Assembly (NCBI GenBank): GCA_000999315.1
Contig: LCFW01000002.1
Coordinates: 62,001-126,000 of the forward strand
Length of the DNA: 64,000 nucleotides
Source: Candidatus Peregrinibacteria bacterium GW2011_GWF2_43_17
Lineage (GTDB): Bacteria > Patescibacteriota > Gracilibacteria > UBA1369 > UBA12470
Direction: 5' to 3'
A model generated the notes under the pieces. It saw only the letters and a program-made list of their open reading frames with translations, had not been told where the DNA came from and made no database searches. The position numbers and the translations under genes are program-made. Below are positions 55,971 to 61,051 of this stretch, piece after piece (the first letter of the stretch is position 1; every line of letters starts with the position of its first letter).

Positions 55971-58088
<2,118 letters not shown>

Positions 58089-58126: not shown

Positions 58127-58636
58127 TTATTTAACTGCCTGCATTGTGTTTCCAATAATTCCATCAAGTTTTTCATAGAGACCAGATGGGTCGAATTTCA
58201 AATCCTCTAACTGCTCTTGATTAATTGTTACTGATTGATTTAATTGTTGTTTAGATATTTCCATTTGTTCGTTAGATGCACTCCGTGAAAAATAAAGACC
58301 TATTATTGAGATAATAAGTGCGGAGATAGCAAGAAGGGTTGCTATAAGTGATGATGAATTAGCATTTTTTAATTCTTCATGTTCAAGCAACCTAAATCTT
58401 GATTCCAAAGTTAAAACATAAGGGATGTCTGCCTTTAGGGTAGTGCAACCCCAATTGTACTTGCCTTGATCTAATGGCACATACATTGAACAGACCAAAT
58501 TCGCCAATCTGAATTCGTTTATATTTACTCTCTTCCTTTCTAGTTGTTTTATTAAATCAGAAAATTTTATTCCTTCTTCGATTTTGTCTTTCCCGAATTT
58601 TAAAATTTCTATGTATAAGTCATTTTTCCTAAACAT
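58127..58636 (-). CDS. Membrane-anchored hypothetical protein
   Basis: The product starts probably at 58636 (MFRKNDLYIEILKFGKDKIEEGIKF), with an alternative ATG at 58672. The N-terminal ~90 residues are predicted to contain a helical bundle, possibly winged-helix-like (FSDLIKQLERKRVNINEFRLANLV). They are followed by one membrane span (SSLIATLLAISALIISIIGLYF) and a polar tail with Gln/Asn. No family is recognised. It stands between ligA and the palindrome-rich region that starts at 58680, so it may belong to the same accessory block. Confidence 0.5.
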   Translation of the reverse strand: MFRKNDLYIEILKFGKDKIEEGIKFSDLIKQLERKRVNINEFRLANLVCSMYVPLDQGKYNWGCTTLKADIPYVLTLESRFRLLEHEELKNANSSSLIATLLAISALIISIIGLYFSRSASNEQMEISKQQLNQSVTINQEQLEDLKFDPSGLYEKLDGIIGNTMQAVK

Positions 58637-58680
58637 ATTTGTGAATAATTTATATTTGGCACAAATTAACATTACCTTTG

Positions 58681-58842
58681 TTTGAACCCCCGGGCAACTC
58701 TGTTAACAGGCCGGTAGCGAAGCGAACGATCAATTATTATGAGTTTGATTGCTAATGCAATCTCCTCATAAAATTCTCCCCGGGGAGAAAACCCAGCTGC
58801 TGTTTAAACAAATCTTAATGTTATTGAATTCAATAACATTAA
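58681..58842. repeat. Left flank of the Bro-N cassette: stacked palindromes
   Basis: This segment holds TTTGAACC (58681-58688) and CAGGCCGGT (58707-58715), which recur inverted at 59791-59821. It also has an ATGAG/CTCAT hairpin with an inner GATTGC/GCAATC pair (58739-58769), the palindrome TTCTCCCCGGGGAGAA (58774-58789), and a perfect 28-bp palindrome (58815-58842) centred on GAATTC. Such density of palindromes in 160 bp suggests the edge of an exchangeable unit. Confidence 0.65.
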
Positions 58843-58882
58843 AACACTGAAAATCCAAATCCCGTGACAAACAGCTTCCAAC

Positions 58883-59710
58883 TCACTTAATCCTTTTTCC
58901 ACCTCGCCTCTTCGGCAAATAATTCTCTTTGGACACCACAGATCTGCCAATCTCATGCTCCAATGCTTTTCTCGCAGTACCGGCGATTTTGCCACCTCTT
59001 TCGGCATCTTTTTTAAGCTTGGGCACGCCTTTTGAATTATCGATGCGATGAATTTCGGTTGTTGATCTCTCGCCAAGCATGGTGAAGATCAGCTCGAAAT
59101 CATCCATGTGATCACGTAAATTTTCTCGTTTCAATCCTTTCAGATCCTTATATTCACTTGGGGTTACGCCAAAAGTGGCTTTTGATATTTCGGCGGTTAA
59201 TATCTCGTAATCTTTTTGCTCTTGCGCGCCTCGTTTCTGCCATTCGTCGGTCAATTCTTCACGAATAGCAATCCCGCGCATTCGTTTCTCAATCCATTCT
59301 TCCGGATAACCTTTCAGTTTATACAACATGCGTGTTCGTTTGGTCGCCAGTTCAGGATTTTCTATTTCTTGTACTCGCTCGTAACCGACTTTTGCCAGCC
59401 AACGCTTAAACGGCTCGGCTTTAGGGGAGGGGATTGATTGAATGATACGGAAAATACCTTCGGTGTTTGCGCAATTCATTTTCTGGATGCCTCCTTCTGT
59501 TAATATGTCAAGGGTGTGTACAATTTGTACATATCCTTTTGCCAATTCCGGATCACGATATTTCATACGTTGAATATATTGTTTTGGATTGCTTGAGTCC
59601 ATAAGGGCTAAAACGACATCTTCAACCACAAACCACCACTCATTATTATGGAGAGTTTTTCTGATTCTTGTGCCTTTGAATAGCGCTATTTTTGTAGTTT
59701 GATTGTCCAT
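58883..59710 (-). CDS. Bro-N domain protein (phage antirepressor-like)
   Basis: The N-terminal ~110 residues match the Bro-N domain (IRKTLHNNEWWFVVEDVVLALMDSSNPKQYIQRMKYRDPEL), with the usual GIFRIIQSIPSPKAEPFKRWLAKVG segment. The rest is a helical region (residues ~130-230), and the C-terminus is basic (LPKRRGGKRIK), consistent with DNA binding. Bro-N proteins occur as phage antirepressors, and similar solitary genes are common in CPR genomes, where their role is unknown. The gene lies between stacked palindromes on both sides, unlike any other gene here. No phage structural gene is nearby. Function as a regulator is inference. Confidence 0.8.
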   Translation of the reverse strand: MDNQTTKIALFKGTRIRKTLHNNEWWFVVEDVVLALMDSSNPKQYIQRMKYRDPELAKGYVQIVHTLDILTEGGIQKMNCANTEGIFRIIQSIPSPKAEPFKRWLAKVGYERVQEIENPELATKRTRMLYKLKGYPEEWIEKRMRGIAIREELTDEWQKRGAQEQKDYEILTAEISKATFGVTPSEYKDLKGLKRENLRDHMDDFELIFTMLGERSTTEIHRIDNSKGVPKLKKDAERGGKIAGTARKALEHEIGRSVVSKENYLPKRRGGKRIK

Positions 59711-59755
59711 TCGCCAGATAGTATATCACGCAGACATTAAATTTTTATGAAAAAA

Positions 59756-59790
59756 CAAAGGGGGGGGGGCGATTTGCCCCCCCCCCTTTG
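59756..59790. repeat. G10/C10 perfect hairpin
   Basis: CAAA followed by ten G and a C (59756-59770) pairs with G, ten C and TTTG (59776-59790) around the loop GATTT. The 15-bp stem contains an uninterrupted run of ten G-C pairs, 46 bp upstream of the Bro-N start. The long G-run could form a quadruplex. It may be a transcription stop, a recombination substrate or an assembly-sensitive homopolymer. Confidence 0.7.
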
Positions 59791-59865
59791 ACCGGCCTGC
59801 CCCGCCTTGCGGTGGTTCAAACCTGTTAACCATTTTTAATGTTATTGAATTCGATAACATTAAAA
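59791..59865. repeat. Right flank of the Bro-N cassette
   Basis: ACCGGCCTG (59791-59799) and GGTTCAAA (59814-59821) are the inverted copies of the left-flank motifs. A 32-bp palindrome (59834-59865) with one central mismatch repeats the one at 58815-58842, including TTATTGAATTC. Confidence 0.65.
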
Positions 59866-59983
59866 CAAAAAGCGGGACGATTTATTAGTTTGGTAGAAAA
59901 TTCGGGAATCCTGAATTTTCTCATCCATTCGACGAAATCAAATAGTCGTATTTTATGCTTTCCTCAACCTGTTGCAGGCCGTC

Positions 59984-61051
59984 CTAGGACGTCTCACCCA
60001 CAAACCTTTGTATCAAATAGCACCCGCACAAAACCGGCCTAAATCCAGCCGGCCACGCACCGGGGATCTCCTCCGATATCTCTTCGCCCAACGATACGAT
60101 TTGATCCATGCTCGCCGCCCTCTCATGTTTCAGCGGTACCACCAACACGCGATCTCCATCTCTTTTCAGCGCGCCAATTATCCCTCGAGCATTTTTATCG
60201 CGCAAAAATCCCATCAAAAAGAAAAATTTCTCACCAGGATACTTGGCATCCAATCGTTCACGCAAAAGTTTCGCGCTTTCGACCGTGTGAGCCATATCAA
60301 ACACGCACTCTTGCCCAAAAACCTCTTTGATTTCAAATCTCGCAGGCAAATCAGCACGTACTTCGCCGACCACTATACCCAAATACCCAAGCACTCTTCT
60401 TGCCACCTCTTCATTCGATCCCGCCTCGTCAAACCTGAACAATTTGGCCCCACCTCTTACCACAGCCAACTTCTCCGCCTCAATCTTCTCGATAGTATCT
60501 CCAAGAATTTCGGCATGCTCTTTTTCCATCCTTGTCAAAACCACAACCTTGGGCTCTTTCGCGACATTCGTCGCATCCAATCTGCCACCCAACCCGGCCT
60601 CAACAACCGCATATTCAACCCCGATATCGGCAAAATATTTAAACATGCAAATCGTCAAAAACTCGAAAAAAGTAAAATCGCCCGGATTCAACATCGAAGC
60701 AACTTCCAAAACGACTTTCTCAAGTTCTTCATCCGTAATTTCTTCTCCGTTCACCCTGATTCTCTCATTCATCCTGTAAATATGCGGAGAATAATACGAA
60801 CCGACCGTATGACCGGCGCCAATCAGTCCTTGCTCAATCATTCGTACCGTCGAACCTTTTCCCTTCGATCCGACAACATGAATAAAAACATACTTGTCCT
60901 GTGGATTTCCCATCTTGCGAAGCGTCTCTTTCACCCTCGCGAGCCCGGCCTCAAAATCCGGTTTCTTCCCGGTCTTCTCGTAATTCGCCAACTTGTCGAA
61001 AATATGATTTATATTCAAAATATGCGCTGTTATCCCTCCGAAACCTCCCAT
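59984..61051 (-). CDS. folC: Folylpolyglutamate synthase/Mur ligase-type enzyme, shortened
   Basis: FolC adds glutamate to folates (or makes dihydrofolate). The 355-residue protein has the P-loop VVGSKGKGST (near residue 60), SPHIYRMNERIRVNGEEI, VVEAGLGGRLDATN and the C-terminal domain with FFFLMGFLRDKNA. The length is about 70-80 residues below the usual ~430, and the DH...LG motif is reduced to KEHAEILG. The same fold is used by CapB-like and Mur ligases, so folate specificity is likely but not proven. It overlaps dnaX by 22 bp and is probably cotranscribed. Confidence 0.8.
   Translation of the reverse strand: MGGFGGITAHILNINHIFDKLANYEKTGKKPDFEAGLARVKETLRKMGNPQDKYVFIHVVGSKGKGSTVRMIEQGLIGAGHTVGSYYSPHIYRMNERIRVNGEEITDEELEKVVLEVASMLNPGDFTFFEFLTICMFKYFADIGVEYAVVEAGLGGRLDATNVAKEPKVVVLTRMEKEHAEILGDTIEKIEAEKLAVVRGGAKLFRFDEAGSNEEVARRVLGYLGIVVGEVRADLPARFEIKEVFGQECVFDMAHTVESAKLLRERLDAKYPGEKFFFLMGFLRDKNARGIIGALKRDGDRVLVVPLKHERAASMDQIVSLGEEISEEIPGAWPAGFRPVLCGCYLIQRFVGETS

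What the first reader, a model, noticed from the sequence alone, without database searches (positions are those of the whole stretch)
58681..59865. Bro-N gene bracketed by matched inverted repeats and long palindromes
Both sides of the Bro-N gene carry TTTGAACC plus CAGGCCGGT (inverted on the right) and nearly identical palindromes of 28-32 bp centred on GAATTC. The left side adds TTCTCCCCGGGGAGAA and another hairpin, the right side a G10/C10 hairpin. This resembles a cassette whose ends could be recognised by a recombinase, and no neighbouring gene is arranged this way.
Basis: seen in the sequence. Interest (0 to 1): 0.65.

Follow-up and report, generated by a model that had tools for sequence, protein, structure and literature searches.

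The report
Mobile defence-candidate gene with duplicated flanks
A single Bro-N gene that spreads widely between bacteria has landed between two housekeeping genes and is flanked by two copies of a short hairpin sequence; relatives suggest these copies are the footprint of the insertion (a duplicated target) rather than the ends of a recombinase-driven cassette.

Summary
The flanking sequences are real and unique: the 28-bp palindrome and the TTTGAACC/CAGGCCGGT pair each occur in the 1.2-Mb genome only at the two sides of this gene. The "recombinase cassette" reading is only partly right. The gene (275 aa, Bro-N plus helical C-terminal domain; PADLOC candidate PDC-S13, E 3e-108) is horizontally mobile: 103 of 386 relatives have it, same-family genomes lack it, and 67-84% identical copies occur across phyla. 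But no second cassette with these ends exists in the genome, and homologues do not share them. The palindromes are better read as the core of a 47-bp DIRECT repeat. Across 190 homologous loci, long direct (not inverted) repeats flank the gene more often than other genes (26/190 vs 20/383, p=9e-4; 0.3% in mismatched pairs), often duplicating a neighbouring gene end or terminator-like hairpin. One sister genome shows a single-copy empty site. Sister G002 has one palindrome and a different defence-candidate gene (PDC-S45) at the window's site. Best reading: a single-gene defence candidate inserted with long target duplication, as known for restriction-modification genes. The model resembles the DNA-damage protein DdrC. 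Antiviral function and insertion mechanism are inferred.

The parts
58883..59710 (-). Bro-N gene, 275 aa; PF02498 N-terminal domain plus helical C-terminal domain; PADLOC PDC-S13, PHROG 15286
   Evidence: AlphaFold model mean pLDDT 86
58800..58846 (+). distal copy of the 47-bp direct repeat, with perfect palindrome 58815-58842 (just downstream of the gene's stop codon)
59823..59867 (+). folC-proximal copy of the direct repeat, with palindrome 59834-59865; aligns over 58 bp with the folC-proximal hairpin array of sister genome G002, so probably the native copy
58680..58715 (+). left GTTTGAACC...CAGGCCGGT motif pair
59791..59822 (-). right copy of the same motif pair, inverted
58774..58789 (.). 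palindrome TTCTCCCCGGGGAGAA, also present next to the palindrome in G002
58739..58769 (.). hairpin ATGAGTTTGATTGC...GCAATCTCCTCAT
59756..59790 (-). C10/G10 hairpin followed by T6 on the minus strand; terminator-like, between folC and the Bro-N promoter region
59984..61051 (-). Mur-ligase-family (folC-like) gene, conserved right neighbour in G001 and G002
55986..58088 (+). ligA (NAD-dependent DNA ligase), conserved left neighbour
58127..58672 (-). second accessory ORF, 181 aa, no relative in 290 related genomes

Best explanation
The block is a horizontally acquired single gene of the candidate anti-phage family PDC-S13, inserted downstream of folC in the convergent folC/ligA intergenic region. 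The insertion left a long target duplication: a palindromic hairpin at the folC 3' side was copied, so the gene now sits between two copies of it in direct orientation. Shown: the gene is accessory and mobile; the repeats are unique to this site; direct repeats are an enriched mark of the family; one clean empty site exists elsewhere in the family; and the window's site holds a different defence candidate in a sister genus. Inferred: that the window's two palindromes arose by this duplication and not by independent hairpin evolution; that insertion used ordinary or homology-assisted recombination of transferred DNA; that the hairpins act as bidirectional terminators; and that the protein works as a DNA-binding (DdrC/DinD-like) defence or DNA-damage factor.
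For: Mobility: absent from G001 and G002, present in 103 of 386 relatives; 67-84% identical proteins in many phyla; the gene tree mixes phyla, 48 label changes against a minimum of 30. Site: G001 ligA/folC abut; G002, whose ligA is 88% identical, has one palindrome and a PDC-S45-like gene there; the window's right flank aligns with that array. Direct repeats: in 190 loci score >=16 in 26, against 0.3% of mismatched flank pairs and 20/383 control genes (p 9e-4); at the same score inverted repeats are in 2/190 and 10/383 controls. Repeats overlap a neighbouring ORF in 16 of 26: 3' end of the upstream gene in L073, 5' end of a type III res-like gene in L044, promoter and first codons of a proS-like gene in L062; terminator-like hairpins in L186, L185, L016. 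Empty site: G034 has two hairpin copies around the gene upstream of purC; sister G047 (purC 91% identical) has one copy and no Bro-N gene there. Defence context: PDC-S13; neighbours include Cas4 (8 of 133), ResIII (7), Cas1, SWI2/SNF2, YhcG nuclease (4 each). Structure: DdrC, Z 13.9, Foldseek probability 1.00.
Against: Only 26 of 190 loci show strong direct repeats, so most insertions lack the mark or it has decayed. 20 of 383 control genes also show them, and some repeats may come from tandem paralogues (for example L181). The window's repeat core is palindromic, so it also pairs inverted (27.5 against 31.5). The left flank also matches the G002 array in the opposite orientation (TTCTCCCCGGGGAGAA before the palindrome), so a simple one-step duplication does not explain the whole flank, nor the inverted TTTGAACC/CAGGCCGGT pair. 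G002 is not a true empty site, because it holds other cargo. Antiviral function was not tested.
Confidence: 0.6

Rival explanations
1. Cassette whose ends are recognised by a recombinase: terminal inverted repeats or palindromes are sites for a transposase or tyrosine recombinase acting in trans.
For: Near-identical 28-bp palindromes on both sides with an 11+6+11 layout like Xer sites; the site holds different cargo in G002.
Against: No further copies in the genome; homologous Bro-N loci share no ends; inverted repeats not enriched in the family; no transposase or recombinase seen at the locus and tyrosine recombinases only on other contigs; no GC-skew switch at the site that would mark a chromosomal dif.
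Confidence: 0.12
2. The palindromes are just bidirectional terminators that evolved or were copied locally between convergent genes; their pairing around the gene is a regulatory arrangement, not a trace of insertion.
For: Strong hairpins; G002 has four hairpins in a row at the folC 3' end (z -5.7); the site lies between convergent genes.
Against: The direct repeat extends beyond the palindrome core to 47 bp, and the two cores differ at one position in 28, which independently evolved hairpins would not. No other palindrome of this size in the 64-kb window apart from the C10/G10 hairpin. A terminator role is compatible with the best explanation.
Confidence: 0.2
3. Part of a decayed prophage: the Bro-N protein as a phage antirepressor.
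For: Bro-N is the domain of phage antirepressors, and weak PHROG antirepressor matches exist.
Against: Only 8 loci among 2.9 million viral contigs, 4 of 50,697 phage records and 10 of 72,556 plasmid records hold relatives, against a hit limit reached in cellular genomes; no phage genes flank it here, and neighbours elsewhere are R-M and CRISPR genes.
Confidence: 0.05

Closest known systems
Insertion with long target duplication of restriction-modification genes (Nobusato et al. 2000, described in PMC1643837 and PMC3031569)
   Same: A mobile defence-type gene flanked by long, variable direct repeats copied from the target; no transposase of its own
   Different: One gene instead of an R-M pair; cross-phylum spread; the duplicated target here is a palindromic hairpin; based on comparison of species, not of strains
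PADLOC PDC-S13 (candidate single-gene anti-phage family; the guilt-by-embedding approach to PDCs is described in PMC12988326)
   Same: Sequence match over nearly the whole protein, E 3e-108
   Different: The PADLOC class is a prediction; its insertion footprint was not found described in the papers held here
Deinococcus radiodurans DdrC
   Same: Model aligns over both domains (213 residues, Z 13.9); DdrC is a damage-induced DNA-binding, strand-annealing and DNA-circularising protein (PMC5436757)
   Different: 12% sequence identity and rmsd 11 (domain arrangement differs); no DNA-binding data for this family
E. coli DinD (NF008573)
   Same: Colinear weak match of the C-terminal region
   Different: 13.5 bits against a cut-off of 242

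Membership tests
Bro-N domain proteins (PF02498) | Pfam score above the gathering cut-off | tested here: met
   51.4 bits against 25.6
PADLOC PDC-S13 | full-length profile match | tested here: met
   E 3.3e-108, residues 4-268 on profile 3-270 of 286
PDC-S13 as an anti-phage system | protection against phage | not testable with these tools
   only context: neighbours are CRISPR and R-M genes
Insertion with long target duplication | long direct repeats flanking the gene | tested here: met
   47-bp direct repeat here; enriched in the family
Insertion with long target duplication | single copy at the empty site in a close relative | tested here: inconclusive
   Shown for G034/G047; at the window's own site G002 has one copy and no Bro-N, but other cargo, and G001 has no copy
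IS or MITE-type element | shared terminal inverted repeats and several copies | tested here: not met
   single copy, ends not shared with homologues
dif or pdif module (Xer) | site at the replication terminus or canonical XerC/XerD arms | tested here: inconclusive
   no GC-skew switch at the site; canonical-dif scan at background level; 11+6+11 layout noted but arms differ by inspection
Integron gene cassette | attC site with RYYYAAC/GTTRRRY ends | tested here: not met
   by inspection the palindromes end in TTAATG/CATTAA, not GTTRRRY/RYYYAAC
DinD (NF008573) | NCBIfam cut-off 242 bits | tested here: not met
   13.5 bits
DdrC-like fold | two-domain fold match | tested here: met
   Z 13.9, next unrelated row 8.4; Foldseek E 7e-7; a shared fold shows no function

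The most novel reading that the evidence does not exclude
The gene is a self-moving single gene: the DdrC-like protein, by annealing strands or circularising DNA (as DdrC does in vitro), promotes insertion of its own gene at hairpins or gene ends and so produces the long target duplications without a transposase or recombinase.
Probability: 0.07. Interest if true: 0.88.

Novelty: new variant of a known kind. Interest (0 to 1): 0.5.

Why it matters
It gives a footprint for how single-gene defence candidates get into operons of many phyla without transposases: they arrive mostly co-directional, next to gene ends or terminator-like hairpins, with a long duplication that can leave the neighbour intact. 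It also offers a testable link between a large uncharacterised candidate defence family, DinD and the radiation-response protein DdrC.

Tried and rejected
Rfam: no match in the region. Further cassette copies in the genome by palindrome or motif pair: none. Flank motifs at homologous loci: none. Palindrome as chromosomal dif: no GC-skew switch, canonical-dif scan at background. Phage origin: few viral or plasmid relatives. Function of the 181-aa neighbour: no family and no relatives. PDB by sequence: only three marginal RNA-polymerase matches over one short stretch, judged chance. A second empty-site test beside a sufU-like gene (L016): relatives are too diverged (62-63% protein identity at best) to compare intergenic DNA. 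Papers: no text hit for PDC-S13 or for DdrC with BRO family.

Full report
What is there. The window lies on a 373-kb contig of a 1.2-Mb genome. Between the convergent genes ligA (55986-58088, +) and a folC-like Mur ligase (59984-61051, -) lie a 181-aa ORF (58127-58672, -) and a 275-aa Bro-N gene (58883-59710, -). The palindrome and the ACCGGCCTG...GGTTCAAA pair each occur only twice in the genome, at the two sides of this gene.

The gene. It scores as Bro-N, PHROG 15286 and PADLOC PDC-S13. It is present in 103 of 386 relatives but not in the two same-family genomes. The tree does not follow phyla well: 48 label changes against a minimum of 30, shuffled mean 55.8; the label is still somewhat clustered. 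Close viral or plasmid relatives are rare. Around 80 homologous loci, nearest neighbours include Cas4 (8 of 133), ResIII (7), Cas1 (4), SWI2/SNF2 (4) and YhcG nuclease (4). Neighbours in the larger set are co-directional in 279 of 360 cases. This fits the guilt-by-embedding class of candidate defence genes (PMC12988326).

The site in relatives. In G001 (ligA 67% identical) ligA and folC abut, with no cargo and no palindrome. In G002 (ligA 88% identical) the same gap holds a 321-aa ORF matching PADLOC PDC-S45 (E 2e-13), preceded on the folC side by TTCTCCCCGGGGAGAA, one copy of the palindrome and GGTTAAC. The window's right flank aligns with this array over 58 bp. So the palindrome belongs to the site, not to the Bro-N gene, and the site has received different single genes.

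Direct, not inverted. Including flanks, the two palindromes form a 47-bp direct repeat (score 31.5) rather than a 30-bp inverted one (27.5). I therefore tested the family. In 190 unique loci, the 250 bp upstream and downstream share a direct repeat with score >=16 in 26, against 0.3% of mismatched flank pairs and 20 of 383 control ORFs in the same loci (Fisher p 9e-4). At the same score, inverted repeats are found in 2 of 190 and in 10 of 383 controls. Other score cut-offs from 12.5 to 20 give p from 2e-6 to 2e-3; at 30 the difference is no longer significant, 10/190 against 10/383, p 0.14. In 16 of the 26 the repeat overlaps a neighbouring ORF: for example the last codons of the upstream gene (L073), the start of a type III res-like gene (L044), or 81 bp reaching into the first codons of a proS-like gene (L062). 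In L186, L185 and L016 the repeat is itself a terminator-like hairpin, as in the window. For L186 the sister genome G047 (purC 91% identical) has a single copy of the hairpin and no Bro-N gene there. This matches insertion with long target duplication as described for restriction-modification genes (PMC1643837; PMC3031569).

Function. The AlphaFold model (mean pLDDT 86) matches full-length DdrC of Deinococcus (Foldseek probability 1.00; Z 13.9 over 213 residues, rmsd 11.3). The high rmsd means the domains match in order but not in arrangement. DdrC binds DNA, anneals strands and circularises linear DNA in vitro (PMC5436757). The C-terminal region also weakly matches DinD, below its cut-off. 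A DNA-damage or DNA-end-binding defence protein is the working inference; it is untested. In 20 of 190 loci the 90 bp upstream of the gene holds GGTG-N10-CACC, against 0 of 190 in a control stretch further upstream, which suggests repression by some regulator; the window's copy lacks it by inspection.

What is not explained. The inverted TTTGAACC/CAGGCCGGT pair, and the reversed order of TTCTCCCCGGGGAGAA and the palindrome on the left compared with G002, are not accounted for by one simple duplication. A second rearrangement, or repeated hairpin evolution, is needed. Most homologous loci show no clear repeat. The controls also have direct repeats at about 5%, so the enrichment is roughly 2.6-fold, not absolute.

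Verdict. Observation confirmed; the cassette interpretation is half right (mobile, yes; recombinase-recognised reusable ends, not supported). New variant of a known kind.

Noticed in passing
Promoters of homologous Bro-N genes, e.g. L186, L021, L027, L009, L176: Operator-like inverted repeat GGTG-N10-CACC in the 90 bp upstream of 20 of 190 genes, often TTGAC-GGTGAGTnnnnnCTCACC-TATAAT, in two sequence variants; 0 of 190 in a control stretch. Possibly a lineage-specific stress or SOS operator.
   Followed up: partly
window 58883-59710: Predicted fold resembles Deinococcus DdrC over both domains.
   Followed up: partly
L161:1836-2801 (G002): PDC-S45-like gene between folC and ligA, right after four tandem hairpins.
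   Followed up: partly
G034, G041 (upstream of purC); G343, G210 (beside a sufU-like gene): Bro-N genes sit at the same neighbour gene in more than one genome, which suggests preferred insertion sites.
   Followed up: partly
L062, upstream flank: An 81-bp duplicated leader and first codons of a proS-like gene precede the Bro-N gene, so the insertion may borrow a promoter while the neighbour keeps its own.
   Followed up: no
L101:3795-4867: The direct repeat overlaps the start of the downstream gene, which by inspection looks like a small helical avd-type protein.
   Followed up: no
phage records MT838753, MT838532: Phage records of about 5 kb from human faeces encode a 42-46% identical Bro-N protein.
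   Followed up: no
window 58127-58672: 181-aa ORF without relatives in 290 related genomes, next to ligA.
   Followed up: partly
window 59756-59790: Perfect C10/G10 hairpin, which could be hard to sequence; assembly accuracy there is unverified.
   Followed up: no
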